Source: Edaphochlamys debaryana (taxonomy: Eukaryota; Chlorophyta; Chlorophyceae; Chlamydomonadales). From it: 64,000 nucleotides of DNA. A model generated the notes under the pieces. It saw nothing but the letters and a program-made list of their open reading frames with translations. It did not search any database and was not told where the DNA came from. Location: contig JAEHOE010000184.1 in NCBI GenBank assembly GCA_016858145.1, positions 62,001-126,000 on the forward strand, in the 5' to 3' direction. The translations under genes were made by a program, and so were the position numbers. How positions within the stretch are numbered: the stretch's first letter is position 1; each line of letters starts with the position of its first letter. Shown one piece after another: positions 274 through 63,800 of this stretch.

Positions 274-3200
274 CCCATCTTTTACGACCGCCACGGCACC
301 TTCCACAACCTCACACACCACCTCATGGGCTCACGGGGCTCCGGCAACCTCAATGACGGCTCCCCCTCCGCCGCCGAGGCCGAGGCTCAGCAGGTGGCCG
401 ACGGCGCCGCCGCGGCGGCGGTGGCAGGCGCACTGGCGACGGACGCTGCCGCCGACGCCGCCTCTGCCTCCGCCGCCGCCGCCGCTTCCACCGCCTTCAC
501 CGCCGCCGCCGCCGAGCTGACGGTGGCGGCGGTGGCGAGCGCTGTGGTGGACGCGCCCGCGCCCGCGGCCGCAGGCGCCAGCACGTCTGGGGCCGTCGCG
601 GCGAACTTTGACCTCACGCCCTTCCTGCCGTCCTGGAGCATTGCCAAGTGGGTTGTCGGGGGTTTCCGGGGGTTGCCGTGGGTTTCGTGGTCGGTGGGCG
701 TGTCAATGATCCAATCTTGCTGTGCCTTCTTGGCCCAGCTCTAACTTGCATTCCTGGGCCCACCCCACCTCGCACAAACACTCACCCCCACCCTGCCCTT
801 TCCTCCTCCTTCCTCTACCGCTCTCCCCTGGGTCCCCAGGAGCCACGTGTGGGCGCTGGCGGAGGAGGGCCTGCTCCGGGCCATGCAGGCGGAGGCGGCG
901 GCGCGGGTGCACCTGCGGGCGGCCCTGGAGCCACACATGCCGGGCATCGCCGAGGACGCGGAGGACGACGACCCCGCCAACCCCACCCCCACCAACCTCA
1001 CCCGCCCCACCACCAACCCGGGAGCTGCTGGGGTTGCAGCCGCAGCCGCAGCCGCCGGGGCCGGGGCCGAGGCCAGGGCCGGAAGTGGGGCCGGGGCCGA
1101 GGCGGCAGCTACGGCCCTGGCGTTCTCGACTGTCACCCCCGCCACGACCCCGGCTGATGCGGCCTTCAGCCCGGAACGGTTGGCCTTCGCACGCCTGCCC
1201 ACGGGCCCCCGCATGAGCTCCAACCCCGCCTCACCCAACGCCTCCTACGAGGCCTACTCGCCCGCGTATCCAGGATCCTCGATCCACACGCCTTCGTCCT
1301 TGATCCACACGCCTTCGTCCTCGATCCACACGCCGTCCTCGATGCAGCAATCGTTCAGCGCGCGGTTTCCTGCGCGTCGCATGTCGCGATTCGAGCGATG
1401 CCGCAGCATGGACAGGTCGGAGGGCGGCGCGGGATCGCCGCTGGCCATCCCCGCTACGCCTCGCGGCCTGGCTGGATCACACGGGCTGTCGCGTACGACT
1501 TCGTTCAAATCCGTCGCGACCAGCCTCGCGTCCATGATCGTCCCTGGATCCACGGCGGATACGGTGAATCACGCCCGCGCGGATCTCATGCACCACCTGG
1601 CCTACGCGGCGGGCGTGGCGGCGGCGGGCGCCGCCGGATCGGCCATGGGGGCGGTTGGTGACGTGGCGGTTGGGGCGGTGACGGCGGCGGCGTCATCGGC
1701 GGCGGCGCTAGCGCACGTGGGCGTGCAGGGTGCGCTGGAGCTGGGGGCGGGTACGGCAGCGGACCTGTCCATCGGCCGCATCCAGGTGGGCCCGGGCGGG
1801 GCCTGCGGTGGGCCTGGGCGGGGCCTGGGTGGGCGGGGGTCTCGCTGGGCGCGGCCGCCTCGCAACTAATGGAACGGACAGGGTTGGGGCGTCGTGGGGG
1901 CTGTGAGGGCCCCCCGTGGCATCAGCGGTAGTTGCCGCAAGTTCTGGCTTGATCGCCTTATCAGCAAGGATAGGGGCTAGGGCCCGGGGCTAGGGGCTAG
2001 GGGCATTGGCGACGGGGCAAGGGGTGGGTGGAGCAAGGGTGCGGTGCCCAAGGCTGGCACCGACGCCGGCGCCTCCAGCCACGGAACCTGCACCGCCACC
2101 ACAACCACAACCCACCAGCGTCTTCACCCCCTTCCCCACCCACCCACCCACCCCCTCCCCACCCCCAGAGCATCCTGGTAAAGCGCGCCACGCACGCCGC
2201 TGCCGACCACGTGCTCGGCCCCGGCGCCCCGGAGCACGCGCGCGAGGCGCTGCAGCACCGGCTGAGGGCGACACTCTGCGGAGCGTCCATCCTGTTCTTC
2301 CTGCTCAACACGGTGAGGCCGCGCGGGAGGGGCGGGGCAAGCTGGATCCAGCTGGATCCAGCAGGGATCCAGCTGGGTCCGGATGGATCCTGTACGGCAG
2401 GGGGAGCGTGCTGTGGGCGTGCTGTGTGTGTGAGGGGGTTGGGTGTTTGGGGTTAGGGGAGCCGCATGGCATGGTCTGGGAGTCCACTCTCTTCCTCCTA
2501 CTCAACGCGATGAGGCCGCGGGGGAGGGGTGGGGCTGGATCCAGCTGGATCCACCGGCCTGGATCTGGTACGGCAGGGGGGCTGCTCTTCCTGATCACAC
2601 AGTGAGGATCTAAATGGGCATGTTTGTTCAGGATGCGTAGGGTGGGCGCATCGTGTGTTTGTGGGGGCTGGGGGGCAAGGGGCTGTACGGCAGGGGACTC
2701 TTAGGGGGGCGGGAGGGGGGCGGGGGGGCTATGGGGGAGGGGCTTAGGCCTGGGGGCCAGCGGCTCCGGCGGGGCTCTATCGCGAGATCGAGCCCGGCCA
2801 AGCCGGCACGGTCCCACCACGTCTTTGCCCCCCCCCCCCCAACCCCGGGCTCGCTGGCCGCCGCTCAATCTCCCCCTCCGCTCTCTGCCCCCTCCATGCT
2901 CCTCCCCCCCCAAACTCCCCGAAAACCTGAAAATCTCGCCCCTAACCCCCAACCTCCAACTACCCCCCCCCAGCACTCCATGACCGACACGCTCATGCAC
3001 ATCAACTGGCACGACGACCTGGCCACCACCGCCAAGATGGTGGGTGCAGGGGGGGGGGGAGGGAAGAGGTCCAGAAGAGAAAGGGAGAGGGAAAGGGGGA
3101 GGGGGAGGGAAGAGCGAAGGCGGTGGGGGGGCGAAGCGGTGGGCGACGTAGCCCCCCGCTGATGACCTGGTGGTGGGGCGAGGGGGTGGAGTGGGGGAGG

Positions 3201-4168: not shown

Positions 4169-4173
4169 TGTAA
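4169..4173 (+). other. Putative poly(A) signal TGTAA
   Basis: TGTAA is the common nuclear polyadenylation signal of chlamydomonadalean algae. This one lies about 720 bases after the TAA at 3447-3449, a normal 3' UTR length for the group. Confidence 0.4.
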
Positions 4174-7074: not shown

Positions 7075-10000
7075 ATGAACTTGAGGCTTACCCTTGCGAC
7101 CTTAGCCCTGCTATTCGGGTTCGGCTTGTTGTTTCACCACCAAACAACGCAGAGCTCCAGGAGCAGCGTCTTCGCAGCAGCCGCGGCGGGGCCAACGGAG
7201 CCCGCGAAGCCGAGCACCGAGCTGTGGCAGGAGTTGGAGCGATTGGCCGCAGTTGCGCGGGCCAATGTCACTCACGATACATCGCATATTGTGGGTCGTG
7301 GTCAAGTTCGCAGGATTTCAGACGCCTTTAGCGGGTTCCACATGTCGGGTGAGTAGCGAAGTGGAGATCCGCGCGCCTTTTCCGTCGATCGGCCCACGGC
7401 GCGCCTATCTAGAGCCCGACCTCCTGGCGCGAAGCGTGCTGATGAGATAAAATGTTGATGGAGTGCGATCCCCCATTAGCAGCGTTGAAGACACGCACGT
7501 ATCCCACACGTTCGGACCTCGCCGGCTAGCTACCCAGGCCCTCGCGCGCCCCTCCGTTACGATGCACAGGTTACTTCGACAAGTCCCCCTGGAGCGGAGA
7601 CAGCAGCAAGCTGCTGATGCAGAAGACGCCGCAGTACACGCAGGGCATGACGTCCAGCGAGGCGCTGCTCATAGGCGTGCTCACGCTCAACGACCCCAAC
7701 GGCCCGCAGCTGGAGTATGTCACCAACACCACCGCCTGGAACCACCAGCAGGTGAGCTAGCCGTCGGGACGGGCCCCGCCATGCAACGGGTGCCTGTGCC
7801 GGTCTGCTGTGCAGCGGATGCCTGCGGCGCTTACGGTGCCCGCATGCATGATCAGGGTGCGCCGCGCGGCTGGGCTGGGCGCTGGCGCGCGCCTTCGTTT
7901 CTTGCCACCGCCCGCCGCCGTGTGCCAGCGCACCACCGTCCTCCTACCCTGTGGCCCCCAGGGGACCATGCTGCAGTGGCTGGGCTGGAGCAGCAACCTC
8001 ATCGTGTACAACGCCCGCACGGGGCCAGGCAGCTTCCGCGGTGCGTGCCGGCCGGCCCTGCCCCGCGCGTGATGCGACAAGCGTGCACCAGATTTTGCGT
8101 TGCAAGCGTGCTGCGCGCGCCCAGCCACACGCAACTTCGTTCACGTACGCAGCAGCTGCTGAGCTACACACCCGTGGTCAGCGGCATTCGTTTCCCAACT
8201 GCAGGCGTTATCTTTGACACCGAGACGCGCAAGGAGGTGGCCACTCTGCCCATGCCTGTGTACAGCATGGATGCCATGGGCACGATCGCCACCAGCCTGT
8301 CCTTTGCGCGCCTCTACATCGCACGCCGTGACGTGAGTGCTATGCGGTCGCCCCCTGTACATCGCACGCCGTGACGTGAGTGCTACCGGTATGCGGTCGC
8401 CCCCCTGTACATTGCACGCCGTGACGTGAGTGCAATGCATTCGCACCACAATCAACCTGTGTTGCGCCGCCATGCCTGGTTTTGGGGCTTTCATTTGCGG
8501 GGCGATGGGTGGCGCGGAGGCCCTCCGCAGGGGCGGGGGCCACGGCGCGGGCAGGCCATTGGGAGGGAAACGGAAAGCCGGCGGAGCAGGCTGGGAGATC
8601 TTCATAACCCAGAAGTGCCGGCGCGAGCCCTGGGCATGCCGCCTAGTCTGCTGTGCACATCCATGCGCATGCATGGTTGTTGCGAAGAATGAAGGCTGGG
8701 TCGAAGAGGGGTGGCGGATGATCCGAAGTCGGTGAAGATGGGTTCGTGCCCAACGTACCGCGAGCACGGTGGTCTCGGCAGCTTTCCTTGCAATTGAAAG
8801 GCCACACGGCCCATTCGGTCTGGTGCCCCTTGCCGCCTCGCATGCAAGCAATGCACCCACTCACCACTCGCTCCCGCACTTCTTTCCCTTGCTCCACCAA
8901 CCCTTTCTCTGCCCAGTACGGCTACGTGGTCGACTCGGAGGCCACCAGCCGCGAGGTCAGCCGCAAGTGCCCCGACGACGACGGCATCTGGCTGCTGGAG
9001 GGCTTGCAGGGGGCCGTGCAGGGCAAGGTGGGGCGGGGCGAGGGGAGGGGCAAGGGGCGGGGCGAGGGGCGGGGCAAGGTACGGGGGGCAAGGGGACGGG
9101 CAAGGTGTGGTGGGGCAAGGGGGGCTAAGGGGGTGACGAGGAAGTACCGGCAGGGCAGGGGCACTCCTCACCTGCTGCGCGCGTGCCGGCGGGAGTGCGC
9201 CCGCCCCGCCCCACTCACCGCGCCGCTGCTGTTCGTAACCTCACACTTCCCCTCACCCTCACCCGCCCCTGCCCGCCCTCCCTCCCCGCCGCCCTCCCCC
9301 GGCCGTTCCTCCCCCGGCCTGCCGTTCCGCCCCCGCCACCTTACGCTCCCCCGCCCTCGCCCTCCCTCCCTTCCCCGCCCTGCCGGTCCTCCCCCGCCCT
9401 GCCGCTCCTCCCGCGTCCCGCAGCCCGTCAAGCCCCGCCTGCTGCTGACGGTGAAGCAGGCCTTCCAGGCGGTGGCCGCCCTGCCAGAGTTCGACCCGGT
9501 GACCAAGCAGCCCTACGGCACCAAGGTTAGTGGGCACACCTGACCCCGGGGACATCACAGTGAATCATAACAACACGCTACGCCGGGAATCATAGGTTTG
9601 CGGGTCTAGGGTGAGGGTTTAAGGGCACCGCGGGTGTGATCGTGTCAGTTGGGGGGGGGGTAAGGCAGATGTTCTGCGTCCTGTGACCTTGGGGCTTGGG
9701 GGAGGTGGTAGACTGCACCGTAGCGGTTGCAGCCGCAGCCAAGGCAGGGGCTGACCTGACTGTCCTTGCTCGTCACGGCCTGCTGTACCGTTCTGCCGTA
9801 CCCGCCAGTCGCACCTGTGGAACTTCACGGCGGTGGAGCACAACTGCCTCCACTGGATCAACCACGGTACGGCGCAGCGGGCATGGGGCCGGCGGGCGTG
9901 GAGTGTTGCTGGCGCGCACACCGCTGCCATCGCCGCTGTCGCTGTGGGCCGCGTGGCTGAGGGGCCGAGGGGCCCGGATTGTTGTTGCCGTTGTCGCTGT

Positions 10001-13000
10001 GGGCCGCTTGGCCCCTGTTGCGCGCTCCTCGGTTGTGGCCGTGTCGCTGACCCTTGCCCCTCGGCCCCGTCGCATGCGCAGCCCAACTCAACCGCGAGGG
10101 CACCAAGGTGTGCCGGGGCAGCTGCGTGGGGGAAGATCGGATTGAGGCGGGTGGGGGGAGCGCTGACGGGCGCCGTTCGTGGGTCTGCCCCGCACGTACG
10201 ACACCCCCGCGACCATCCTCCCCACACCGTCACGCTTTCCCTCCCCTCCGTCCGCCACCTCAGATCCTGTTCCTGTACCGTGTTGGCCACTGCGCGCACT
10301 TCCGCGGCTGGGCCACCATCCCCATGACCGTGGACATTGCCAGCGGCGCCGTGTGGCGCCTGCCGCTGGCCTTTGGCTCCCACCACGACTACGGCTGGAG
10401 CGACGAGCTCATCAGCTGCGACATCTCGGGCTACTACTTTGCCAAGGTGGGTGGGTGGCCTGCTCAGTCGCGAAGCGACGGGCGGCGGGGAGGGGGAGGG
10501 GGGCTGACGCGGGGCGAGGGGGGGCCCCGGTGCGGGCCGTTGGGGCAGAAGTGGAAGCTGGAAAGCCATGGGGGCATAAAGGGAGGCACCAGGAGGTCGT
10601 CGTAACCCTAGAAGTGCCGGCGCGAGCCCAAGGGGTGCCGCCCGGGCCGCTGGACGCTTCATGCGTATGCATGGCCGTTGCCAGGAAGGCTGAGTCAAAG
10701 AGGGGCAGCGGAAGGTCCGAAGTCGGTTGATGGGTTCGTGTCCTTTGTCGTCGGCCCACAACGGGTTCGTGTCCTACGCCCCCTCATCCCCCTCCATCCC
10801 CCCTCATCCCCCTCTTCCCCGCCCCCGCAGCCCGCCAGGTACAACGTGCGGCTGGGCAAGCCCGCCGAGGTGGCGGCCGGCGGCGACGGGCACTGCAGCT
10901 TCCCGCCCACCTCCAACGAGTTCCTGCTGTCCGACACCTACCCCACCAAGTCGGCGCACTTCCCCATGCCCACGCGCACGCTGTTCACATGGGACCTGGG
11001 TAAGCCCCGCGGCAGGGTTGCCGATACGTATCAGTCACCGCATTGATACGGATACGTATTAATTGGATACGGCCTCTCGCTGCCGTATTAATACGGCATG
11101 CGGCGCCGGGTACCGCGCACGCTGTTCACATGGGACCTGGGTGAGCCCCCTGAGGGTACCGGTACAGTACAGGTTTTGTAGGGGTGAAGGGCTTCGGGGT
11201 GCATGCGGCAGGTCTCGGGGGCTGGTGAACGCCTGTCGCCGACCCACAACGCTTAAGCTCAATCCTGCGCGCCCCTGCTGCCACGCCCGCCCGCCCGCCC
11301 GCCCGCTCCTGCCCCAGTCCGCAACCGCACCTCCATCATCGGCCACTATGCGCCCGTCAAGGAGGGCCCTAACGGCATCTCGCGCGTGGACCTGCACCCA
11401 CGGTAGGGGGCGGCTGGCTGCGGGCAGCCGTGGTGCGGCTAGCTGGAACGGAAAAGCAAGGGCGGGCAGCCGGGCACGGGCCGGTGGTTACACGGACAAG
11501 GGCATCAGGCGTGAACTCCCACACGGGCCGTGGGCCCCAAAGGGACGTAGGTGCGTCCAGTGTGGGCAGCCTCGGTGCGGCTAGCTGAAACGTGGAAGAA
11601 GAACACACGGAAGAGCAAGGGCGGGCAGGCGGGCGCGGGCTACCCCCCATCATGCCGGAGCTGACCCTCCCGACCCGCCCACCCACGCGCATCTGCCTCA
11701 AACCCGTCCGCCCCCGCCACCACCCCACCCAACAAGCCATTCCCGCCGCCCCGCCCGCCCCCGCCACCACCCCACCCAACCGCCCCCGCCGTCCCCCCCG
11801 CCCCGCCTGCCCCCGCAGCTGGTCGCGCGACGGCCGCTACGTGTCCTTCGACTCGACGCACGAGGGACTGGGCCGCCAGGTGTACCTGGCCAAGGTGTAC
11901 AACCGAGCGCTCATGCGCCCCGGCGTGGACGGCGCGCCCACGCGCGCACCGCGCAAGTACTACATGGACCTGGGGGGCCGCAGCGGTGGGTCGAGGCCGG
12001 GTGGTGGTTTGGGGTCGAAGGCCCCGCCACGTGGCGGCTGGTGCCCCACAAGATGACTCCGGCGGGTTGTCCTGGGTTGGGCGTGCGTTCGTCAGGCGGG
12101 GCGCGCCTGGTCTTCCGCGGGTGTTATTGAGCCGACACAACTTGCTTGTCACTACATGGTTTGGTGGAGAGCGGTTCGGCCTGGCGCCAACTCAACATGT
12201 TGGGATCGCGGTCGCACCACCTCGCACACATAGCCCGCCGAGCGGCGCACGGTTATCGGTTTCAAAAGTGCCCTTACTCTGTCAAGCTGAGAGTGAGGTA
12301 GTTAAGACAAGTTTGCGCGCAGCTGATCTAGGATGTTGCGGTGCCGACTTCGGTCAACCTCGCTGCTCAAGCCCGGACCGAATGCGATGTTGGCTACCGA
12401 ACCTTAGCAACTCAAATCCGTCGAGGGGGAAGTAGTTGCAACACCTTCTCGCCGGTTGGCGTGCAAATGTGTGTTTCGCCCCGCGTCCATCCTGGGGCCC
12501 CCGGTCCCTCCCAAGCTTCGCGCGGAGCGCGCCGCACGACGTCCCCAGCGCTTTGCAACGTGCCAGGGTTCGGCCGTTATTTCCAGCTTTTATGCCAGGT
12601 CCATGGGCGGATGTGAAGGAAGCTCAAGCTGCCGGGCGATGCTGCGGGGAGGGCGGTGGGGGACGAGGGGCCAAGATCAGGCAAGCAAGCTCGCCGCTCG
12701 GCCGACGCCCTTTCGCCCCTGCCACGCTCAAGCTCATCACACTCAACCCCCCCGCCGACGCTACGCTGCCGCTTCCCCTCCTCACGCCCCCTCACGCCCC
12801 CTCACGCCGTGGCGTCGGCGCGTTCCCGCTCAGCAACAAACACCCCCTCACGCCCCCTCGCAGGCGACTCCATCGTTAAGTTCCTCAAGGAGAAGCCCGA
12901 CGCGCGCGACTACTCATTCCACAGCTTCGAGTGCAACCCCGAGAACATGCCGATCATTCGCGCCAACATGGATAAGCTGGCGGAGGCGTACGGCATGAAA

Positions 13001-14426: not shown

Positions 14427-14431
14427 TGTAA
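14427..14431 (+). other. Putative poly(A) signal TGTAA
   Basis: Lies about 440 bases after the TAA at 13984-13986 of the propeller-FkbM gene, a plausible 3' end. Confidence 0.4.
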
Positions 14432-19354: not shown

Positions 19355-22300
19355 ATGAACGCGCTGGGGTTCCACCTGTTGGTCATATTTCTGCCGCTCT
19401 ACATGCAGGCGAGTGGCGGGGGCGGGGTGCAGAGAGGCTGAAGAGAGGCGTGGCAGGAGGTCAAGGGAGGACGGCAACTTCCGACCCCGTCCTTCCCTAC
19501 CCCCATCCTTCCCTACCCCGACATGCAGGGCCCTCGCCCCAGGCATGCAACGGGGAGCCCCGGGCAACTCGGGCAGGGTTACTGCCTGGGCTCAGCACGT
19601 TGCGTTCCCGCCTGAACGGGCTGCCGCTCGGTCTGTCCTGCACGAACCCCAACCCTTCCAACCCGCCCGCGTGGCTTCCCCGTGCCGACGGACGTAAAGG
19701 AATCTCCGCGCCGCATGTCGTGTACGCATACATGGCTGCGAACAGCTGGAGACACATAAACATAGCAAGCGCCTGCATTCGGAGCCTCACATCGCGACGA
19801 CATAGGGTTTGGGGCGCTGCACATGCACAGGCGCTCTGTCGCGCGCGCTGCTGTAGATGTCGACTGCTTACTCTCTATAGCCTGCCGTGGCAAAGCGCAT
19901 ACACTGCGTTGAGCTCAACGTTGCCGCTTTCGTTACGAGAAGCCATCTCTCGAGTTCGAGCGCGAAGGGCGCTAGCTCTAACAACACCATCAGCCTGATC
20001 TGCTGTCTGGACTGTTCGCACTCGGACAGGTTCCTACGACCGCTCTCTGGCCGCTGGGCGCAAAGCTTCGGAATGGCGGAATGGTGCGCGCGTTCTTGTC
20101 TGCTGACCTCTCGACAGCATCCGATCACTTCGGGACGCAAATTGCATCGTTTCAACATGCTGAAGCCCTGAGCGTCGTCCTTCGGCGCCGGTGTCTCGAC
20201 ACCGCATGGCTGCGTGCCGTCACCGCGCCAGAACTTCCCTCGAATCCCCCCCACAAAACTCGTGTCCGCGACCTCCCTTCCCCTGGCCACAGGTGTGGTC
20301 CCCTCGAGGACTTCTACGTCCTCGGGCCGATTACAATATGCGAGCTAGAAACGGTCGCGTCGGCGGTGCTGCTGTCGATCTCGCTGATGGCCATCCTGGC
20401 CCAGGTGCGGTCCGGCAGCCAAAAGCCTTCCTCTCGGAAACAGCGTCGGGATTACGCAGCAACCAAGACAGCCCTTTAGCCAAAGCTGTTTGAACTTGGC
20501 ATTGTCTCCAGCCCATCTCATAGCCCTCCCCGCCATTCACCAGCCGTCCCACCTGCACCCCGCTCCGCCCCCCCCACCCCCCCAGCTCCCACCCCCCACC
20601 TTCCCCCTCTCCAACCCCCCTCTCCCCTCCCCCCCCCCCCCCCCCTCCCCCCCTCACCCCCTCCCCCCCCCTCCCCCCCTCTCAGGGCACGCGCATCGCC
20701 CTCCTCCACCAGCTGCGGCTGCAGGGCCGGCTGCGGCGGGGCGTGTCGGGGCTGGACGGCGCCTTCACGGCCGCGGCGCTGTTCCTGGCGGGTTCACACC
20801 TCATCCACCTGGGGGTGGGGCTGCTGGGGCTGCACGCGCAGGTGAGGGGGGGGGGCAGAAAGGGAGGGGGAGGGGGGGATGATTTTGTATGAGTTGGAGT
20901 TTGGGGTGCGAGTGGAGAGCGAAGAGAGAGAGGGAGCGGCAGCCAGCGAGGCCTATGCAAGGGGGGGGGGAAGGGGAGGGGAGAGGCAAGGGGAGGGGAG
21001 GGGAGAGGCAAGGGGAGTGGGAAAGGTGAGACGTAGAGAGGGGGAAAAGGCAGGAAAGGGGGGTTGGGGCTGCTGGGGCTGCACGCGCAGGTGGGGGGAA
21101 GGGATGGAATTGGGGGAGGGGGTAGGCTGGTAACAGGAGGGGGAGCCGGTTGGGGCAGGCTGGGCGCGCCAGGGCGGCGGCGGCGGCGCGGAGCAGGGAG
21201 GTGGGAGCAAGCGGGAATGGAGGGCGGGGGACAGAGCCAAAGAGCCGGGGGGGGGGCGTCTACAAGTCTAGGCCCTCCACCCACCCCGCTGCCGAGCACT
21301 AAACCCTACGCTTCGCCCCCTTTCCCCTCTTCCCTCCCCTCTATCCCCCCCCCCAGCTCCCCTTCAACCTGGTATACCACGGGGCCCTGGCGGTGTTATG
21401 GGGTACCGTGTCGGGGTTCGCTGTGTGGTCGGGTCGCCTGGTGGGGGGGGTGGACTTCAGGGCGGTGGCGGCGCCCGCGGCGGCCGTGTACGCAATCAGG
21501 TGTGTGTGTGTGTGGTGGGGGGATGGGGTTTGGGGTTGGGGTAGTTGGGGATTAGGGTTGGGGGGTTGGGGTGGGGGGCGGGGGGGAGGGGGCGGGGGAG
21601 GGGGCGGGTGGGGCGGGGGGTGGGGGGCGTCGGGGGTGGGGGTGGGGGGTGGCGGGGTGGCAGGGCGGGGGGAGGGGAGGGCTGGGAGGAGAGGGGGGCT
21701 TGGGGAGGGGGCGGACGGAGCCGGGCATAAGGGGGTTCTTTCTGACCTTTCTAAAGAGGCCCCAACCCCTTCCTCACCCCCTCCCTCTCCTTCCGGCGAC
21801 GGCAATCCCGCTCAGCAACAAACACGCCCTCTCCTCCCCCCCGTTCCCCTTAGCCTGACGTACCTGTACAAGCTGTACTTCGATCCCCACGGCGTACCGC
21901 TGCCGTACATCAAGGCGTCCATCTGGACCGCCATGCTGCAGGCAGGTGGCGGGCGGGGGGCGGGGGTGGGGGCCAAGGGCTTCGCCGAGCGTCAGTGGGT
22001 TGCGGCGCCGTAGTCTCATGAGCGCTTAACACGCGGATGTGGCTCTCTGAACAGGCAGGTTCTGCCGCTCTTGGCATCTAATTGGACCCGCTTGCTGGGA
22101 CCCCTTGCCTCGCCCCTCTCAACCTGTTGCCTGCCCGTACCCCCTCCCCCCTATGCCCCTAACCCCCCAAAGGCAGTGACCGCTATCCTTGCCACGTGGA
22201 TGGAGTTCAAGCGGGTGGCCAAGAGCCCCACCACGGAGACCCTGCAGGTGGGGGGCTTGTTTTGGGGGGGGGAGGAGGGGAGGGGTGGGGGGGCACCTGC

Positions 22301-24909: not shown

Positions 24910-24953
<44 letters not shown>

Positions 24954-38900: not shown

Positions 38901-41900
38901 GACGGCGCGTTCACATGACATGAGGCTCTGCGGCTCTGGCGCCTTTATTCGGACACCCTATGAGGCTCGCCCGTCCGCTCCGGAACCATCTGGGCCGCAA
39001 GCCGGGGACCCAGGGGCGGGGGGGGGGGGGGCGCCTTCCAAAGGGTTCGCAGCGTACGGGCTCGGTTGGGCCAGCAGCATCCTCAAGCTCCGCTCGTCCA
39101 ATTGAACAAGCACGAACCGCACGAACCGCGCGTCAGCGCGGGCTGGACGGGGCGCCGGTGGCCGTGGGGTGTGGGGGGCTGCCGGGCACGCGTGCGTAAC
39201 CCCCCCATCATCACCTCTACTTCCCCCCCCCCCCGCCCCTTCAGGTCCTTCCTATGGATTCCGGTGACCCAGGACGCGTACAGGTGCGTGCGTGCGTGCG
39301 TGCGTACGGATGTACGGATGGGAGCATGGACGAAGGGGGGGGCGGGATGTAGGCAGGACCTTCCCCACCCACGGTGCTCCCCCCAATGCTTCTTGGCCCC
39401 GGGCTCCCGAGGGCCATGAGGGCCTCGGCGTAGGGCGCCCCCCCCCCCACCCTTGAGAGTCCTTTTGCCGGCGCCGTTCGAAGCAATCAATTATGTCTCC
39501 TCGCCCCTTCTCGACGCCCATCCCCCTTGCCAACCCTCTGCCCGTGTCCCCCCCTTTATCCCTTCACTCCCCCCTTACCTCCCCCTTACCTCCCCTCTTC
39601 CCCCACCCAAGGCGCATCTCGCTCCGCGTGTTTGATCACGTGATGGACATGGATCTGTCCTTCCACCTGCGCAAGAAGACGGGGGAGGTGACCAAGGTGC
39701 GGATGAGGGGCGAGGGCGGGGGCGAGGGCCGGGGCCGGGGGATCTGGTGTGGTTGTACGGCGGTGGTGAAGCGGAGCCCTACATCCTCCCCCCCCCCTCC
39801 CCCCCCTGTCAGGTCGTGGACAGGGGAACCAATGCCATGCAGAACATACTGTCGACCATCCTCTTCAGCATCCTGCCGCAGGTGTGGGTGTGGGGCGGGG
39901 GCGACCGCGCGCAAAGTGGGCTGGGCAGGCCGTAGCTACTCCACGCCGGCCTATCCAAACGTTTGCATTACCTCGCATTCCGGCATGCTTAGTGCGAAGG
40001 CCCGAGAGCAGGCTGGCGTGCTTGGTGGGATTGGTGTCGGGGCCTTAAAACCAATGCCCACTGCCCCGAAGCCCCGGATGAGTAAGGTTCTCACAACGTG
40101 ATCTTAACCGACATCCAACCGCCAACCGCCACAGATCTTCGACGTGCTGGCCGCCGCCACGTACCTGGCCCAGGCCCTGGAGCCCACCATCGCCATCATC
40201 GTCTTCGTAACCGTCGGGTCGTACATCCCACTCACCATCATCATCACCGAGTGGCGCGGCAAGCTGCGGCGGGAGATGAACCAGACGGATCAGGCAAGGC
40301 ATGGGGGGGGCGGGGGATAAGGGGGGGGGCAGTGGGGATTTGGGGGGGGGGTAGGGCGGTGTAGGGGCTGCGGGAGATGAACCAGACGGACCAGGCAAGG
40401 GATAGGCGGATGGGGGCAAAGGGGTGGTGGTGGCAGTGGCCGTGATTCTCGTAGTACGGGAGCGAGGAAGGAGAGGGGGCAGTGGGGGTGGGTTTCGGGG
40501 TGTGGGGGTGGAGGGGCGGCGGGAGATGAAGCAGACCTACCAGGCGAGGCCGGGGGGTGGGGGGCAAAGAGGGGCGGCTTGGGGGGGGGGGGGGCGGGAA
40601 GGTAACGGGACGGACCAGGCAAGGCAGACGGGGGTGAGGGGTAAAGGGGGTGGGGCAGTGGGGGTGGGGGGTGGGGGTGGAGGGGCGGCAGGGGATGTAC
40701 TAGACAGACCTGGCAAGGCAGGGGGGGGTAAGGCGGGGGAAGGGGGAGTACAGGGGGATTGTGAGGAGGGGAAGCGGTAAATGAAGGGAGCAGCGGACCA
40801 GGCAAAGCCATCAGGTCATGTGAAGGGGTGCAGAGGGGCGGGGGGTGGGTAGCGCTGCGTAAAAGCGCAGGGGTGGGGGTGGAGGTGTGAGCTGCGGGGG
40901 GCAGCGGAGCGCTGCCCGTAGCTCACACCTCCCATGCCTCTGCCCTCCCCCTCCCTCCCCCTTCACCCCCCCCCCCAGGTCAAGAGCGCACGTGCCACGG
41001 ACGCGCTGCTCAACTACGAAACCGTCAAGTACTTCACCAACGAAAAGTGGGTTTCTGGGTGTCGGGGCGAACGACTGCCCAGCCCTGATCTCCTCCGGGC
41101 ACGCTCCTCCCTTGCGCCCTTCCCTCCCTCTCTACCTCTGCTCGAGTCCGACCACTACGCCGTTTCTCGGGGCAAAATCTGAAGGGCGAAACATTCCTTC
41201 CCCCTTTTCCGCCCGCCTTCCCACCCCCTCCCACCCCCTCCCACCCCCTCCCACCCCCTCCCACCCCAGGCATGAGTCCTGCCAGTACGCTGCCGCCATC
41301 GCCGCCTACCAGTCGGCAGAGTTCCGCTCCCAGTCCTCCATCAACGTGCTCAACGTGGTGCAGGTATGGGGGAAACATGTATGATACATGCGTATGTGAA
41401 GATACCAAGATCGAGGCGTGATACGTTAGGATGCATGAGGCTGGGAGCGACGGTGAGGGGCTGTCCTCCATTATCGTGCTCAACGTGGTGCAGGTAGGGG
41501 CGGCAGTTGGAACTAAGATAGCAAAGGATACTTGGCACGGCACGGCATAGCGAGGTTTAGATCGGGGCATGGTGCCAACGGGGTGGGGCAGCCTTCCATC
41601 AACGTCAAGGTGGTGCAGGTGGGTATGGTGTCTGGCACTGAAGCATTGTGGGACTGGTCGGTGCGAGGATAGCGGCGCTGGCTAGCGGTGAAGGGCGGCT
41701 CTTCGCTGTTGACCTCCTCGACCTCGAATAACTCCCCTGACGCCTCCCCCCGTCCCCCCTCGCCCTTCCCCCCCCCCCCCAGTCCGCCATTATGTTCTGC
41801 GGCATCTCCCTTCCCCCTCCCCCTTGCCCTTACCCTACTCATCCCTCTCCTTTCCTCCCCCCTCCCCCTTACCTCCCTTGCCTCCCCCCCCCCCCCCCCC

Positions 41901-44900
41901 CCCCCCAGTCCGCCATTATGTTCTGCGGCATCTCCCCTCCCCTCTCCTTGCCTCCCCCCTCCCCCTGACTTCCCTCCCCCCCGTCCTCCCCCCTCCCCCT
42001 TACCTCCCTTGCCTCCCCCCTCCCCCCCAGTCCGCCATCATGTTCTGTGGCATCTCCTCAGGACTGGTGGTGTGCGCAGGTGGGCGAGGGAGGGTGTCCT
42101 GGGGCAACCTATGAACGGGGGCCGGAAAGGGCCCAACCCTCCGCGCTGCCCCCCTCCCCCCGGACTTGGGAACGTGCCGCTCGTCCCTGCTCCCACTAGG
42201 CGCGCCTGCTGACTACCCGTCCTCGTTGCCCCTCCCCCTCCCTCACCGCAGCTGGCGTGTCGGCCGGCTCCCTGACGGTTGGAGATGCCGTACTGTTCCT
42301 GTCGCTCATGGCCCAGCTGTACGGCCCGCTCAACTTCTTCGGGTCGTACTACCGTACCATCCAGCAGTACATGGTGCGTGCGCGCAGGCGGGGCAGGACT
42401 CCGTGGGGGGGGGGGGCGCTCGCTGGGCGGGCTCACGAGACCAGGGTCATACGTGCGAACGGAGAGACAAGCGGCATGGGCGCTACCAGATGTAGCGACG
42501 ATTGCTCGAAAGGTCGCGCCAGCCGTCAACTCCCAACCACCAACCGTCAACCGCCAATTGCCGACCCAGATCGACATGGAGAACCTGCTGGAGCTGCTCA
42601 ACCGCCGCCCGGGGGTCACCGACAGCCCCACGGCCCGCGAGCTGGTGGTTGGCAAGGGTGCGTGGGGTGGGGTGGGGGGTGGGGGGTCGGGAATCGGGGG
42701 TGCAACTAAGCGGGGCTGCGTCGTGGGGTGGGGCGGGGGGTGGGGTTTAGGGGGTAGCTGGTGCGTAGTGCTGGGCCAAGGGAGAGGGCGGGGGAGCGGG
42801 GATTGGAGTGCCGACGGAGACGCTATGCGGTGCGGTGCGGTGCGGAGAAGGTGTGGGGTGCGTACGAGCCATGATGGTTGGGCGAGGGACGGCCACGCTA
42901 TGTCCCTATGTCCCTATGACCCTCTATGCCCTGCAAGGGCAGTCCTCCGCTCTGGGGGGCCGTGGGGCTGGGCGCTCGCGTGCTCACCACATGTACACCT
43001 CCCCCCATTGTGTTGGTCTTCCCGTTCCCCGCGGATTTATCCTCCCCGCAGGCGAGGTGTCGTTCGATGACGTGTCTTTCCAGTACGAGGAGGCGGGGCA
43101 GGTGGGGGAATGGGTGTGAACGGCTGCGCGTGTCAGCCGGGGAAGCGTGTGGGGGGGGGGGGGAGGGGGGGCGTTGGGAGGCGCGGGTTTGTGCCATGGC
43201 CGGCCGTCGAATGCCCATCCGCGAGGACCACGAGCCCATCCGCGAGGACCGCAAGCCCCGATATTCGGATCACCGTTACCCCTTGGCCCATACCCCATCG
43301 CCGCCCCCACGCAAGTCTCCCGTCTCGCTCGGTGCAGGTGCACCCCAGCCCCCCTCGTCTAGCACACGCAGCACTGCAGCTCATCTCCCTCCCCCCTTCA
43401 GCCCCCCAATCCCCCCCTTAGGTGGTCCTCCGCGGCGTGTCATTCCGTGTGACTGGCGGCAAGACCCTGGCGCTGGTTGGGGCCACGGGCAGCGGCAAGA
43501 GCACCATCACTCGCCTGGTGTTCAGGTGGGTGGGGGGAGGGGAGGTGGCAAGGGTGGCAAGAGGGGAGGGGGGAGGAGGGGGGGGAGGCAGCGGCAAGAG
43601 CACCATCACGCGCCTGGTTTGCAGGTGTGTGTGTGGGGGGGGGGGGGGTGGGGGTGCAAAGGCAAGGGGCTAGAGCATCATCACTTGCCCGGGGCATTCG
43701 CCTCGTGTGCCCTCCACCCCTACAGCCGTGCCGTGCTGTGCTCTCTCCTCATGCTGTGCTGTGCGCTCACCCTCTTCCGTGCTGTGCCCCCCCTCTTCCC
43801 CCAGGTTCTACGACGTTGCCTCCGGGGCGGTGCGGGTGGACGGGCAAGACGTGCGGTCGGTCACCCAGGCCAGCCTGCGGAGGGCGGTGGGCATGGTGCC
43901 GCAGGTGGGGGGGTGGTAGGGGTGTAGGGGAGGGGGGGAAAAAGGGGGGGGGGTCGTGAGGGAGAGGGAGAAGGGGGAGGGAGGGGGGGGGTCGTGAGGG
44001 AGAGGGAGAAGGGGGGCGGTGGGCATGGTGCTGCAGGTGGGGGCAAGAGCACCATTACTCGCCTGGTGTTCAGATGGGGGGGGAAGGGGAGGGGAGGGAT
44101 GCGAGAGGGAGGGAGGGGGGAGAGGATTTGGAGGGACGGGGGAGGGAGGGCGGCGGGCATGGTGCCGCAGGTGGTGGGGAGGGGAGGGAAGGGTAATGAG
44201 GTGGAGGATGATGTCATAAAGCCTACCCCCTCTCCCTCCCTTCCATCTCCCCCTCTCCCTCTCCCTCCCTTCCCCCTCCCCCTCAGGACACTGTGCTGTT
44301 CAACGACACGATCCTGCACAACATCCGGTACGGCAATTTGGCGGCCACGGACGAGCAGGTGGGACAAGCAGATGGGGGTGGGGCTGGGCGACGTCGTAGG
44401 GCTGTTGGTAAAGCCAGGCATATGTGACAGACGGGCCGGGAGTTGCGCGGCCGAGCGTTCAGCTTGTTGGCAAGCAAGGCGAGCTCCGGCCCTCACATTC
44501 CCTTCGCATGCAACCCTTCGCCCCGCGTCACCTTCCGCCTTAACCCCCCCACCCCGGCAGGTGTTCGAGGTGGCCCGCCTGGCCTGCATCCACGACACCA
44601 TCGTCAACCGCTTCCCCAAGGCAGGTGGTTGGCGGTCGGTTAGCGGTTGTCAGTTGGCGGTCGGCAGTTGGTAGTTGACGGCACACGGAGGCGTGATGAC
44701 ACCACATGTTGGCACCAGTCTGCGGGGCCCGGGCCTGCACACTGCAGGTCCGCAAACCCCAGTGATGCGAACCCTTTGGCTGCCTGACCTCCCCCGAGCG
44801 CGCACGCACGCCTCTGCCGATCTCTCCACCTAAACCCCGCTGCCTGCTCCTCTCCCCCGCACCTTCCATCCCCCCCTCGATCGTGGGCGAAGCCCTGCCT

Positions 44901-46923
44901 CCTACGGTATCCTGCCCCCTCCCCTCAACCCTTCCCTCTCGCCCCTCCTTTCCCCACCCCACCCCACACCTCAAGGGCTACGACACGATCGTGGGCGAGC
45001 GGGGACTGCGCCTGAGCGGCGGCGAGAAGCAGCGGGTGGCATTCGCCCGGGCCCTGCTCAAGAACCCGGCAATCCTGGTGCTGGGTGGGTCGGGACGGGG
45101 TGGGGTGTGTTGTGTAGCGAGGAAGTGTTGTGTGGCGACAAGGGCCTACGGAAATCCCCTTCTCCCACCCGCCCAATAGGATGGCCCCCGCCTAGTGCGC
45201 CAACCCCCATCCCAACCTCCTGGCCTCATGCCTGTTCTTCACCCTTATCTACCCGGTCCCCCAGATGAGGCCACCTCTGCTCTGGACACAATCACAGAGA
45301 AAAAGATCCAGGTGGGAGGGGAGGGGGCAGAGGGAAGGTGTTGGGCACCGTCCGGGGCGCTCCGCAGGCAAGCTTTGAGCTTTCCGACATGCGATGAAGT
45401 GGCACGCGGCGAGCTTGCACCCGCATGCCTCCCTGCTTGCTTGCCCCCGTCAGACTGCCCTCGCTGAGCTCCGGTCCGAGCGGACCACCATCATCGTGGC
45501 ACACAGGTGAGATCGGATCTTCATCTTACAGGGCGTGGGGGCATGCCTGATTTTGTCTGGAGCAATCAGATAGTTCTTCAGGATAGGTTATGGATCCTGT
45601 GTCCACCATCATCGTGGCTCACAGGTGGGGCTGGGGGCCGGGGGGGTGCGGGGGCATTGAGGAACGTGTATTGCGTTCATCAAGTAGGGATGGAGAGTGG
45701 GGCCTGGAGAGGTAGCTCTCGCCGTGCGGCCGCAAGACTGTAGCTCCCTCCTCCCCACCCCCCCGCCCCCCAGGCTGTCCACCATTGCGGATGCGGACCT
45801 GATTGTGGTCATGGCCGGGGGGAAGGTGGCGCAGGTGAGGGTGATGGGGGGAGACCTGCGAGTTCTAAGGGGGGGGGGAAATCGGGAAATGTGTCTGAAA
45901 GGAGGGGGGACTGGAAAAATGGCGCAGGTGAGGCGGGGACGGGGCAGGGCCCGCAGGGGAAAGGGGGTGGGCCGGCGGCAAGGTGGCGAGGGTGGGGGAC
46001 CTGCGTGGGGGTGGCAGAGGGTTTGGCCGAGGAGGTGGTCTGCTTGACCGCGTCCTGAAGCCTTTCCTTTCTAACGCCACCCACCCCGACCCCACCGCGA
46101 CCCCACCCCCCTCTAACCCCACCCCAGACCGGCAGCCACTCGGCCCTGCTGGCGGAGGGGGGGCTGTACGCGGACATGTGGGCGCGCCAGGCGGCAGCGG
46201 CGGAGAAGGTGGGAAGGGGGGCATGCGGAGTATGTTTGGTGCGGCAATGCTGGTACGGCAGTGCCGTCGGCGAGAGCAGCGGCCGCCAAGTGCGTGGGGT
46301 TGAGGCACGGCTTGCGTAGTGCCAAAGATAACCAGTAGGTCGGCGCCTGATCTAGTCCCGTACATGACGTACCTGCCGCACACGTACTGCAGGGCGAGCC
46401 GCTGAGCTCTGGCGGCGCCGGCTCCCGCATCGGCAGCGCCGCCGACCTCACCCGCCTCGCCGCCACCCCGCCCGCCACCGACGACGACGCTGGCGGCGGC
46501 GCCGGCGGCTGCCCCTTCAGCGGCGCTGGCGGCGGCGGCGGCGGTGGTCACGTGCGCGACGCGCCGCCTGCCCACAGGCACGCGCCGACGGCTGCTGGCG
46601 GCGGCGGCGGGTGCCCGCATCACGCGGCGGCTCGGGAGGCAGCGGCGGCAGTACCTGCAGTGCCGGCGGCGGCCGCGGGCAGCTCTTGCTCTGACGCTGG
46701 CGGGGTGGCGGCCAGTGAGGCTGCATCGGCGGTCAGCAGCGGCGCAACGGGCTCGGCGGCCCCTGCAGAGCCGCAGCCGCCGTCACAGCCGGCGGAGGCC
46801 GCGGCAGAGCCGGCGGCGACGGGCGGGGCCGATGGTAGCAAGGGCGCCGGCAGCAGCAGCACCGGCGGCGGCGGCGGGGGCGGAGGCGGAGGCAAGAAGG
46901 GCAAGAAGGGTAGGGGAAAGTGA
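35999..46923 (+). CDS. Half-size ABC transporter, HMT1/ABCB6 type (copy 2, N-terminally truncated, frameshift in first exon)
   Basis: Exons equivalent to E6-E31 of copy 1: 35999-36074, 36358-36508, 37310-37473, 37858-38070, 38322-38411, 38574-38635, 39245-39283, 39612-39696, 39813-39881, 40135-40293, 40979-41046, 41270-41363, 42031-42079, 42252-42373, 42570-42657, 43052-43101, 43422-43525, 43805-43904, 44287-44358, 44561-44620, 44976-45084, 45265-45311, 45454-45506, 45774-45834, 46128-46208, 46393-46923. The six-helix core and ATPase are intact, including Walker A (GATGSGKST), Q-loop (GMVPQDTVLF, lost in copy 1), [16 protein letters not shown] and VAHRLST. Exons for the extra N-terminal membrane domain are absent. 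The first exon has one extra T (GAGTTTCAAG against GAGTTCAAG), breaking its frame. From the second exon on, the frame stays open to the TGA. Any product would need a later start or an unknown 5' exon; no promoter was recognised. It could be a pseudogene still kept nearly intact, or a short core-only transporter. Confidence 0.75.
37062..37240 (+). repeat. Acceptor-side echoes of ABC exon 8 in copy 2
   Basis: Before the real exon 8 (37310) the intron holds two partial copies of its acceptor and first codons: CACAGCCCCTGGCGGAGGCG near 37066 and CACAGCCCCTGGAGGTGGTG near 37185. The first continues in exon-like fashion for about 60 bases. Copy 1 lacks them. Confidence 0.8.
41462..41625 (+). repeat. 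Two echoes of exon 17 end in copy 2
   Basis: The exon end AACGTGCTCAACGTGGTGCAG plus gta recurs near 41474-41497 (GTGCTCAACGTGGTGCAGGTA) and near 41596-41623 (ATCAACGTCAAGGTGGTGCAG). Copy 1 has one degenerate version at about 27040-27070 (ATCAAGGTTGCTGAGGTTGG). Confidence 0.75.
41778..41940 (+). repeat. Two acceptor-side echoes of exon 18 in copy 2
   Basis: The acceptor and exon start CAGTCCGCCATTATGTTCTG is present at about 41780 and 41908 before the real exon at 42031. Each is preceded by a long C-rich tract, so each resembles a complete 3' splice site. Copy 1 has only the real exon. Confidence 0.85.
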
Positions 46924-60895: not shown

Positions 60896-63800
60896 ATGCT
60901 CCAATGCTCGGGCGTTCACCAAGCGTTTGCCTCCTCTTCAAGCGAAACACGCACAGCTACGGTCTTAGAACGCTCCCGCGGAGGCCATGGACGCCGGGAC
61001 CACGCCGACCTTCTCGCCATCCCATCCCCACCACCGTGGCCGCATCCCCCGCCCACACCCCCGCCCCGCCACCGCTCCCCTCCCCAACCCCCCAACTCCC
61101 CCCGCTTCCCCCGCACCAGGCCCCGCCGCGGCGCCCTGGCCGTTCGCGCCAGCGCCAGCGCCCCGCAGCGCTCCTCGCTCATCCCGGACACGCTGCAGGG
61201 CCTGGAGGAGGACGCCGAGTACAAGGAGTACCTTGCAGCCCTGGCGGCCTCGGGGCAGCAGGCGCAGACGCGCGAGGAGCGTCGCAAGCGGCAGCGGTCT
61301 CTGGACGCACTGGGGGCGCCGGACTTCATCGCCACGTGCAAGGTGAGGGGTGGGGGGCGGGGTCGGACTCGAGGGCTAGAAGGTTGGGGCGGGGAGAGGT
61401 GGCTGGATGCGCTTAGCCTGAGGCCGCCGCCCCCACCCACGACTCACGGGGTGGGAGGACGAGCCCCCTACCTGATCGACCACCATGCCCTCCTCGCCCA
61501 CCCACACCACACCCTGCCCCCTCCCCCCTCCCCCCTCCCCCCGCCCCCCCCCCTCCCCTCCCCCAGGCCAACGGCGTAGCTCCCCTGCGCCGCGACCCCG
61601 CCCGCATCCTGCAGCTCAACATCGGGCTCTACTGCAACCAGGCCTGCAGGTGTGTGGTGGTTGTGGGGGTGGGGGTGTGGTAGGGGGTGGGCGGGGAGGG
61701 GGCTCGGGGGTGCAGGTTGGCCTGCAGGTGTGTTTGAATGCTTGGGTTGATGCGCGATAACCAGGTGCCAGTGCGGTAGTAAGCGGCGAGCAAGGCGAAC
61801 CCGGAACCGCAAAACAAAGCAATCGTGTGCAGGCCTGCTGGTGTGTGTGTGGGGTGGGGGGTGGGGTGGGGTGGGGGGGGATAACGGTAGGGAGGGTGGC
61901 TGGGGGGGTGCAGGATGAGGGGTACCGGTAGATCACGGGCCGTGGGTCAGGCTTGGAGGGCCTCCGAACCGCGCCACCACCTCTCCACTTCCTCCCCACT
62001 CCTCACTCACTGCCCAGCCCCACCGACCACACCCCTCCCAACCCCTCCCAACTCGGTGCGCATCGGGCTCGCCGGCCGCCGCCTTATCGTTTCCCGCTCG
62101 AAAACATACCCCTCCCAACCCCCACCATCCCTCCCTCTTCCCCTCAAACCCCCCAGCCACTGCCACGTGGAGTCCTCCCCCTTGCGCAAGGCCGAGCAGG
62201 CCTCACGTGCCACCGTGGACCGCGTGCTGAGCCTGCTGCGGGCGGAGCGGGCCAAGCCGGGGGGCGGGGGGGTGGCCACGCTGGACATCACGGGGGGGGC
62301 GCCGGAGCTGAACGAGAACTTCAGGTGGGGGGGATGGGGGCGGGAGGAGTGAGGGGAAGAGGAGGGGGAGGGGGAGGGGAGGGCGGGGAGGGGGAGGGGC
62401 AAGGGAAGGGAGACATGGGGGCGGGGTAGGGGTAACTGCTGGACGGATTGGGAGGGTGGGAAAGGAGAGGGAGAGGCGCAGCCACAACTCACGTGCCGTT
62501 CGTGCCTCAGGGACTCGGGGCTGGGGTTGCGGAGCGCATGCCCCTGCCCCCACCGGCCCGTCCACCCAGCCATCTTAAGTCCCCGTCCCCCCTCCCCCCC
62601 CTGTCAGGTACCTGGTGGAGCAGGCCTCCCCCCTGGGGGTTGAGATCATCGACCGCTGCAATCTCACGGTGCTGCTGGAGCCGGGGCAGGAGGACACAGT
62701 GGCGTTCCTGGCCAAGCACAAGGCGAGCATGGGAAGGGGGAGGGGGCAGGGGTTGGAGGGGGGGTGGGGGAGGACGGGTAAGGCAGAGGGTAGATGGGGC
62801 TATAGGGGGAGTGCTGGTGGGGGCAGGAGGACACCGTGGCCTTCCTGGCAAAGCGCAAGGCGTGGGGGGGGGGGGAACAGGAGGGACAGGCGGCAACAAA
62901 TGGGAGGCGGGTGGGGAGCTTGTGCGATGACAGATAGTGTGACACTCCTCCTCAACCCCCCTCCTCAACCCCCCTCCTCCCTAAACCCCCCAGGTCCGCG
63001 TGCTGGCCTCCCTGCCCTGCTACTCGGAGGGCAACGTGGACGCCCAGCGCGGGCGGGGCGTGTTCGACCGCTCCATAGCGGCGCTCAAGGCGCTGAACGC
63101 GGCAGGGTACGGGGTGCCGGGCAGCGGCCTCACGCTGGACCTCATCTACAACCCGGGTGGGTGGAGAGTGGGGGAGGGGAGGGGGGCAAGAGTGCTTTTG
63201 GGGTGGGGCAGGGAGGCAGGCTCGGGGGGATGACGCAGCACACACGTTGCATTCATCGTTGCAAGGTCTCAAGACGAGCCCGTAGAGTCACCTCTCGCCT
63301 CCTATCACGCGCCCCCCACACGCCCCCACCCCTCGTCCTTGGCTGGTCCAGGCGGTGCGTTCCTGGCCCCCTCCCAGGCCAAGCTGGAGCCCGCCTACAG
63401 ATCCGAGCTGGGATCCGTGTACGGCATCTCGTTCTCCAGCCTCCTGGCGCTGAACAACATGCCGATCAAGCGCTTCGCGGACTGGCTGCTGCGGAACGGC
63501 AAGATGGAGGTGGGGCCTTGGGGAGATGAACGATGGGAGAGGGGGGTGATTTTGGAGGGCGTGGGGGGCTGGTCTGCGAGGTGGGTGCACGAGGTCGAAG
63601 TGTGCAGCGTTCGACGAGGGTCGTGAGCCAGGGGCTTGAGCCAGGGGCCAGGGGCAAAGAGGTTTGCTAGGCAGACGAAGGGGGAGCGATCCGCGAACGC
63701 AGCCTCTGGACCGTTGACACCCGCAACCTTGACCCCCGCCCTCCTATCCCCCCCTCCAACCCTCTTTACCCCCCCCTCCAACCCTCCGCCCCCCCTGCTC

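What the first reader, a model, noticed from the sequence alone, without database searches (positions are those of the whole stretch)
2281..62868. Window-wide 'splice-donor echoes': exon ends and their donors are tandemly repeated inside the following intron
In at least four unrelated genes the last 15-45 bases of an exon plus its donor recur, degenerate, a short way into the next intron. Examples: unknown gene 2482-2560; propeller-FkbM gene 8356-8433 and 11114-11149; ABC genes 21066-21097, 24512-24535, 26016-26440, 28587-28632, 29069-29105, 30480-30514, 41462-41623, 43587-43625, 44015-44175, 45602-45630; ArsS-like gene 62825-62866. Many echoes keep a usable donor, so they could act as decoys, create alternative exons, or seed intron growth. 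Because the echo is always next to its own source exon, local tandem duplication across the exon/intron border fits better than insertion of a mobile element.
Basis: seen in the sequence. Interest (0 to 1): 0.85.

Follow-up and report, generated by a model that had tools for sequence, protein, structure and literature searches.

The report
Exon-border scraps duplicated inside algal introns
In this green-alga DNA, short pieces covering the end (or start) of an exon have been copied into the neighbouring intron, most likely as scars of sloppy local DNA repair that lengthen introns; the copies are real, but they look like debris rather than switches.

Summary
Of the 14 listed intervals, 13 hold a copy of the adjacent exon end plus donor at SW>=90; 24512-24535 is weak. 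With a self-trained gene finder on the window plus 20 sampled 10-kb stretches of the same 141.9-Mb genome, 25 of 389 introns carry a donor-side copy against about 1.3 expected: window 18 of 102, elsewhere 7 of 287. The window was chosen for this feature and overstates it.

Outside the window the donor is not special: acceptor-side copies are as common (8 of 287) and the exon-end excess is no higher than inside introns. No sequence sign of use as alternative exons: spacing ignores frame, stops intervene in 14 of 20, donor letters are kept about as expected.

Anatomy favours template-switching or patch repair over simple slippage. Many copies are short and separated from the source by unrelated filler. 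One filler is a truncated piece of a hAT-like MITE whose fuller copies mostly have 8-bp target duplications. One copy is a chimera with the previous exon's end. Direct local repeats outnumber inverted 91 to 6. ABC paralogues with 4% exon divergence differ in these copies and in intron length. Closest known: patch-type break-repair insertions described in rice.

The parts
2275..2584 (+). gene at 1-4056: exon end 2275-2312 with donor 2313; degenerate copy 2475-2584, spacing about 197
   Evidence: alignment, 75% over 119; own score 130; filler 2330-2480 single copy
8311..8438 (+). true tandem array across donor 8333: unit 43-50 nt, 2.8 copies
   Evidence: TRF (spacing 43); one search score 152
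10973..11008 (+). source: exon end -27 to +9 around donor 11000
   Evidence: 36 nt, 97% to 11114-11149
11013..11114 (+). filler: left about 100 bp of a dispersed hAT-like MITE, truncated
11114..11149 (+). copy of 10973-11008, 97% over 36 nt
21066..21097 (+). ABC1: copy of exon end before donor 20842, spacing 249
   Evidence: score 177
24512..24535 (+). ABC1: weak copy of exon end before donor 24283; same sequence in the ABC2 intron
   Evidence: score 75, p 0.057
25907..26412 (+). ABC1: five-copy degenerate array of exon end + GC donor (25935); matching array in ABC2 at 40266-40767
   Evidence: families D6/D7
28587..28632 (+). ABC1: copy of exon end before donor 28481; ABC2 has one at 43587
29069..29105 (+). 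ABC1: copy of exon end ending about 28957; ABC2 has one at 44139-44175
30480..30514 (+). ABC1: copy of exon end before donor 30389, spacing 121; partner intron in ABC2 (45085-45264) scores under 90; filler single copy
36040..36231 (+). ABC2: array across donor 36075, three copies, spacing about 76; partner intron in ABC1 has only a partial look-alike
37030..37336 (+). ABC2: acceptor-side repeat (acceptor + exon start), copies about 37068 and 37188, exon start 37310; my model makes a 9-nt exon of 37188-37196
   Evidence: family D20
41331..41623 (+). ABC2: donor-side triplication (41364, 41494, 41619); same intron in ABC1 is 193 bp and scores under 90; my model makes a 9-nt exon of 41610-41618
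41768..42059 (+). ABC2: acceptor-side triplication in the same intron, unit about 122-131
   Evidence: TRF (131 x 2.0)
43587..43625 (+). ABC2: copy of exon end before donor 43526, spacing 99
   Evidence: score 190
44011..44093 (+). ABC2: chimeric copy: own exon end (source 43879-43911) fused to the previous exon's end (source 43478-43545)
44139..44177 (+). ABC2: second copy of own exon end before donor 43905, spacing 266
45601..45629 (+). ABC2: copy of exon end before donor 45507, spacing 118; partner intron in ABC1 (31041-31218) scores under 90; filler single copy
62820..62875 (+). radical-SAM gene: copy of exon end (modelled donor 62699; by eye the true donor may be a GC site about 24 nt further on), spacing 137
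   Evidence: gene identity

Best explanation
These are mostly neutral scars of error-prone local DNA repair. A break or stalled fork near an exon-intron border is repaired by re-priming tens of bases back (or by filling in staggered ends), with or without extra 'filler' copied from nearby or from elsewhere. A segment of a few tens of bases is thereby duplicated, either head to tail or separated by filler. When the segment spans a donor, the upstream donor still yields the correct exon; when it spans an acceptor, the downstream acceptor does. The mutation is tolerated and the intron grows. Because selection freezes the exon copy, old border duplications stay recognisable longer than ones lying wholly inside introns. 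Shown: the copies, their adjacency, orientation, fillers, paralogue differences and longer host introns. Inferred: the repair pathway, neutrality, and that splicing ignores the copies.
For: Adjacency: 25 of 389 against about 1.3 expected. Direct orientation: 91 direct and 6 inverted intron-associated local repeats. Outside the window donor and acceptor copies are equally frequent and no commoner than repeats inside introns, at 81-100% detection power. Blocks mostly begin -18 to -38 in the exon and end +3 to +20, unrelated to spacings of 43-593 (read by eye); in the annotation-free scan 2 of 21 donor-intron pairs are full tandems against 18 of 56 intron-intron pairs. Filler at 11013-11114 is a truncated piece of a dispersed element; 7 of 10 fuller copies have an exact 8-bp target duplication (read), so the 36-nt repeat is not its target duplication. 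Chimeric copy joining two exon ends. At SW>=90, 4 ABC intron pairs carry copies in both genes and 4 in one gene only, with lengths 193/667, 321/180, 178/267 and 231/283 bp in the latter, while exons outside a homogenised block differ by 4.2%. Echo introns longer, 372 against 198.5 bp.
Against: In the window donor-side copies outnumber acceptor-side ones 18 to 3 (Fisher p=8e-4), and exon-end windows show 15-24% against 6-12% inside the intron, which preservation of the exon copy may not fully explain. Paralogue introns without scored border copies also differ in length (225/394, 339/202, 532/337). Only 1 of 8 fillers is an identifiable foreign piece; 5 are single copy, 1 has only itself and two local partial copies, 1 gives G-rich low-complexity matches. 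Which copy is older is resolved in 1 of 4 paralogue introns. My gene finder itself used two copies as 9-nt exons (37188-37196, 41610-41618), so some copies carry usable splice signals. Microhomology at junctions was not tested.
Confidence: 0.66

Rival explanations
1. Replication slippage: minisatellite growth of units straddling the border. The gaps between source and copy are simply decayed repeat units.
For: Clear arrays at 8311-8438, 25907-26412/40266-40767, 36040-36231, 41768-42059 and L017.
Against: At 11000 a 97% copy stops abruptly and the gap is MITE sequence. The chimeric copy needs a jump of 548 nt across an exon.
Confidence: 0.17
2. Donor-linked fragility: the G-rich start of introns (R-loops or G-quadruplexes) breaks more often just behind the donor, so donors are true hot spots in some genes.
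For: Introns are 48% G just after the donor. G4-type motifs in the first 150 nt: 18 of 25 echo introns against 121 of 364 others, p=1.6e-4. Window donor excess.
Against: No donor excess over intron interior or acceptor outside the window. The G4 test is not length-matched and 13 of its 25 cases are in two paralogous genes.
Confidence: 0.1
3. Regulatory decoys or alternative exons kept by selection.
For: The two donor letters match the source in 21 and 22 of 25 copies; several copy donors score like real ones; the gene finder took two copies as 9-nt exons.
Against: No frame preference (6/8/6), stops intervene in 14 of 20, donor retention as expected from overall identity, 4 of 8 paralogue intron pairs with a copy have it in one gene only.
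Confidence: 0.04
4. Target-site duplications of mobile introns (introners) or MITEs.
For: MITE piece between source and copy at 11000.
Against: Fuller copies have 8-bp target duplications (7 of 10 exact), not 36 nt. 7 of 8 fillers are not an identifiable dispersed element.
Confidence: 0.03

Closest known systems
Patch-mediated double-strand-break insertions in rice (Vaughn & Bennetzen 2014; paper not held; seen only as summarised in PMC7407515 passages)
   Different: There a genome-wide insertion class in a plant; here seen at exon borders in an alga, as degenerate fossils with one copy held in an exon
Small tandem duplications at breaks with long 3' overhangs, CST/Pol alpha-primase or Pol theta (PMC8355091, passages)
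   Same: Duplication size tied to overhangs of about 43-50 bp, same order as the blocks here
   Different: Mouse and human cells; the passages I saw do not speak of filler; enzymes not examined here
[quoted passage not shown] also listed in PMC3296678, passages)
   Same: Duplication that includes splice-site sequence and is tolerated because of splicing
   Different: That creates a new intron inside an exon; here an existing intron is lengthened
Introners (PMC9860276, one passage)
   Same: Short elements in introns, some families with 3-9 bp target duplications or inverted repeats
   Different: Introners are sequence families that create introns; here fillers are mostly unrelated single-copy DNA in existing introns

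Membership tests
Patch/DSB-repair insertion with local duplication | Duplicated source lies close to the copy and in direct orientation | tested here: met
   Adjacent intron 20 of 389; next 1 of 339; two or three on 0 of 543; four or more on 2 of 1549. 91 direct, 6 inverted
Patch/DSB-repair insertion with local duplication | Filler from ectopic or multiple donors at some events | tested here: met
   MITE piece and two-exon chimera; but 7 of 8 fillers searched gave no identifiable ectopic donor
Patch/DSB-repair insertion with local duplication | Seen as a mutation with pre- and post-event states | tested here: inconclusive
   Paralogue introns with and without copies; polarity resolved in 1 of 4
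Minisatellite / slippage array | Whole unit repeated head to tail | tested here: inconclusive
   Met at some sites; only 2 of 21 donor-intron pairs have block/spacing >=0.8
Introner | One sequence family shared by many introns with defined ends | tested here: not met
   8 fillers searched genome-wide: 1 dispersed element (a truncated piece), 5 single copy, 1 itself plus two local partial copies, 1 G-rich only
hAT-type MITE insertion (as cause of the 36-nt repeat) | Target duplication equals the element's own (8 bp) | tested here: not met
   Fuller copies 8 bp (7 of 10 exact, 1 with 7 of 8 letters, 2 without); repeat here 36 nt and element truncated
Alternative/mutually exclusive exon | Copy used in RNA | not testable with these tools
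   No RNA data available; frame and stop tests give no support

The most novel reading that the evidence does not exclude
In volvocine algae, G-rich post-donor DNA provokes transcription-linked breaks whose template-switch repair keeps copying exon ends into introns. This ratchet could help explain why these algae have unusually long introns, with exon copies serving as a datable fossil record of each growth step.
Probability: 0.15. Interest if true: 0.75.

Novelty: new variant of a known kind. Interest (0 to 1): 0.42.

Why it matters
It gives a way to see intron growth event by event: the exon copy is held nearly constant by selection, so the intronic copy's divergence could date the event. 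The published comparison of these algae (PMC8226300, passages) calls the advantage of their long introns unknown and suggests that double-strand-break repair may be an underappreciated force; border duplications are candidate traces of it. In this sample they touch 35 of 389 introns (donor or acceptor side, SW>=90).

Tried and rejected
Donor hot spot as a general rule: rejected outside the window. Selective upkeep of copy donors: no support. Echo as target duplication of the MITE: rejected. My early reading that in the intron after 45506 the copy is the older of the two (note) did not survive a shuffle test (p 0.10 and 0.37) and is withdrawn. Backward lag -1 hits (13 of 339) were set aside: 12 of 13 come from exons under 40 nt whose query overlaps the intron before; with exons >=40 nt it is 1 of 315. 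The annotation-free scan dropped pairs with 30% or more low-complexity letters, merged near-duplicate pairs, and also shows 60 exon-exon and 6 exon-intron pairs away from borders, which I did not follow. No Rfam match in the window at gathering score. That border copies are not in print as such rests on searches only. Dating, microhomology statistics and other species were not done.
Full report
WHAT THE WINDOW IS. The window lies on contig C184 of an unnamed 141.9-Mb, 502-contig assembly. Window GC is 66.6%. Size, GC and intron length (median 210 in my models) fit the contig assembly of Edaphochlamys debaryana (142.14 Mb, 527 contigs, 67.1% GC, median intron 198; PMC8226300, passages). The species name is my inference. 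The window holds two tandem ABC half-transporter genes (ABC1 20.4-33.1 kb, ABC2 35.0-47.5 kb; ABC_membrane and ABC_tran found in ABC1, the one scanned) and a radical-SAM/DUF3641 gene at 60.7-64 kb, whose Radical_SAM score is just under the curated cut-off.

GENE MODELS. No annotation was available, so I wrote a small HMM gene finder and trained it on the window plus 20 stretches of 10 kb from the same genome. It settled at 388 introns. GC donors were then allowed: 389 introns, 11 of them GC. Models contain errors: the border at 28935 should be about 28958, and two copies were taken as 9-nt exons (37188-37196, 41610-41618), which splits two introns. Counts are approximate.

THE COPIES ARE REAL. 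For each intron the last 40 exon bases plus 10 intron bases were aligned to the intron body and compared with exon ends of other genes on the same intron. At SW>=90, 25 of 389 introns qualify; expected about 1.3. Window 18 of 102, outside 7 of 287. Thirteen of the 14 listed intervals qualify. Other queries at the same threshold: exon middles into the next intron 0 of 243, next-exon middles into the upstream intron 3 of 244, exon starts into the downstream intron 0 of 315, exon ends into the upstream intron 2 of 312, reverse complement 4 of 389; the first intron bases recur in the rest of the intron in 33 of 343. At SW>=100 the adjacent intron gives 20 of 389, the next 1 of 339, the two after that 0 of 543, further ones 2 of 1549. 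Many copies are degenerate, which speaks against assembly artefact; raw reads were not available.

DONORS ARE NOT SPECIAL OUTSIDE THE WINDOW. Acceptor plus exon start is copied upstream into the intron in 8 of 287 outside introns and 3 of 102 in the window. Of the 8, three are in L017 (one of them the same array counted on the donor side) and one (L012) lies in a repetitive coding-like stretch. Sliding 30-nt windows show an excess on the exon side only close to the border (1.4% at -45, 0.3% at -60, 1.0% at -75 over the whole sample, though 3 of 64 at -75 in the window), and an excess throughout introns. Planted copies are detected with power 0.98-1.0 at 10% and 0.81-0.97 at 20% divergence. Outside, estimates above null are 0.4-1.7% across the donor, 0.8-2.3% in the following intron, 0.2-1.3% in the intron before the acceptor, 1.2-1.7% at exon starts. 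In the window: 15-24% at the donor, 6-12% in the following intron, 3-7% before the acceptor, 10-12% right at it, 0-4% at exon starts. Of the window's 18 donor hits 13 are in the ABC pair; the other genes give 5 of 43 against 7 of 287 outside (Fisher p=0.012), but the window was picked for this feature.

ANATOMY. Diagonal plots of 25 donor copies show mostly sharp blocks, by eye beginning -18 to -38 in the exon and ending +3 to +20 in the intron, at spacings of 43-593. An annotation-free scan found 194 local direct pairs after filtering; 21 join a donor to an intron, of which 2 are full tandems (block/spacing >=0.8), against 18 of 56 intron-intron pairs. So two forms coexist: true arrays (8311-8438; the GC-donor array 25907-26412 with its ABC2 counterpart; 36040-36231; 41768-42059; L017) and isolated short copies with unrelated DNA between. 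Intron-associated local repeats are 91 direct and 6 inverted.

A FILLER CAUGHT. Between donor 11000 and its 97%-identical 36-nt copy lies 11013-11114, the left about 100 bp of an element with 154 first-look candidates in the genome; 40 were scored, and the 39 other than itself are 93-96% identical. Ten places were read at greater length: the element is about 410 bp with ends CAGGGTTGC...GCAACCCTG; 7 of 10 have an exact 8-bp target duplication, 1 has 7 of 8 letters, 2 (L043, L047) have none that I could see. That is hAT-like (superfamily named from recalled hallmarks). The 36-nt repeat is therefore not the element's target duplication; the element piece is truncated and sits as filler. Of 8 fillers searched, 1 is this element, 5 are single copy, 1 (L022) shows only itself and two local partial copies, and 1 (20860-21060) has only G-rich low-complexity matches.

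A CHIMERA. At 44011-44093 a copy of the intron's own exon end (source 43879-43911, 94%) runs straight into a copy of the previous exon's end (source 43478-43545, 78% over 68, 548 nt away across an exon). Slippage alone does not make this; template switching or patch insertion does.

PARALOGUES. Over 25 exon pairs, ABC1 and ABC2 differ by 52 of 1238 sites (4.2%) outside, and 14 of 1043 (1.3%) inside, a block that looks recently homogenised (22970-27002). At SW>=90, donor copies occur in both genes at 4 intron pairs (25935/40294, 28481/43526, 28935/43905, 31280/45835) and in one gene only at 4 (30389; 36075, whose ABC1 partner has a partial look-alike; 41364; 45507). Lengths at the latter are 321/180, 231/283, 193/667 and 178/267 bp (ABC1/ABC2), but introns without scored border copies also differ (225/394, 339/202, 532/337). 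Polarity could be resolved only for 30389: the donor there is the older, p=0.005; the other three were not significant.

FUNCTION. Of 20 copies with SW>=95, spacing mod 3 is 0/1/2 in 6/8/6; 14 have an in-frame stop before the copy's donor, and 3 (43526, 28481, 31280) are both in frame and open. The donor letters match the source in 21 and 22 of 25, about what the 0.8 identity around the donor predicts. Nothing here calls for a role in splicing; RNA data would decide.

WHY BORDERS STAND OUT. A duplication inside an intron decays on both copies; one that spans a border decays mainly on one. Border copies are therefore visible longer (inference). Introns with a donor or acceptor copy are longer (all 372 against 198.5 bp; outside 375 against 191; window 372 against 251), consistent with growth by such events. 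G-quadruplex-type motifs are more common in the first 150 nt of echo introns (18 of 25 against 121 of 364); not length-matched and half from two paralogues, so only a lead.

VERDICT. Observation confirmed; interpretation partly supported. The most likely process is patch-like, template-switching repair of local breaks, known from rice insertions (as summarised in PMC7407515, passages) and from break repair in mammalian cells (PMC8355091, passages). New here, as far as my searches show, is its record at exon borders and its possible use as a clock of intron growth.

Noticed in passing
window 33496-34387 and 34676-35567: A near-perfect 892-bp inverted repeat (score 4442 of a possible 4460) around a 288-bp centre, between ABC1 and ABC2; a 501-bp piece of the arm was found only at these two places in the genome.
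   Followed up: partly
window 11013-11114; L043-L052: Dispersed hAT-like MITE of about 410 bp, 154 first-look candidates, scored copies 93-96% alike, suggesting recent activity. L047 holds two copies in a 491-bp tandem that includes the left flank.
   Followed up: partly
introns of the window and L003-L022: Introns are strongly asymmetric: 48% G / 22% C just after the donor, 16% G / 52% C before the acceptor (295 introns >=160 bp).
   Followed up: partly
window 22970-27002 vs 37307-41368: Block of ABC1/ABC2 with exon divergence 1.3% against 4.2% elsewhere and mostly very similar introns: likely recent gene conversion.
   Followed up: partly
window 28941-28957: ABC1 exon end has one more base in a C run than the same exon in ABC2: sequencing error or a disabled reading frame; not resolved.
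   Followed up: no
window 25935 and 40294: Modelled GC-AG intron whose GC donor recurs in the degenerate arrays of both paralogues.
   Followed up: no
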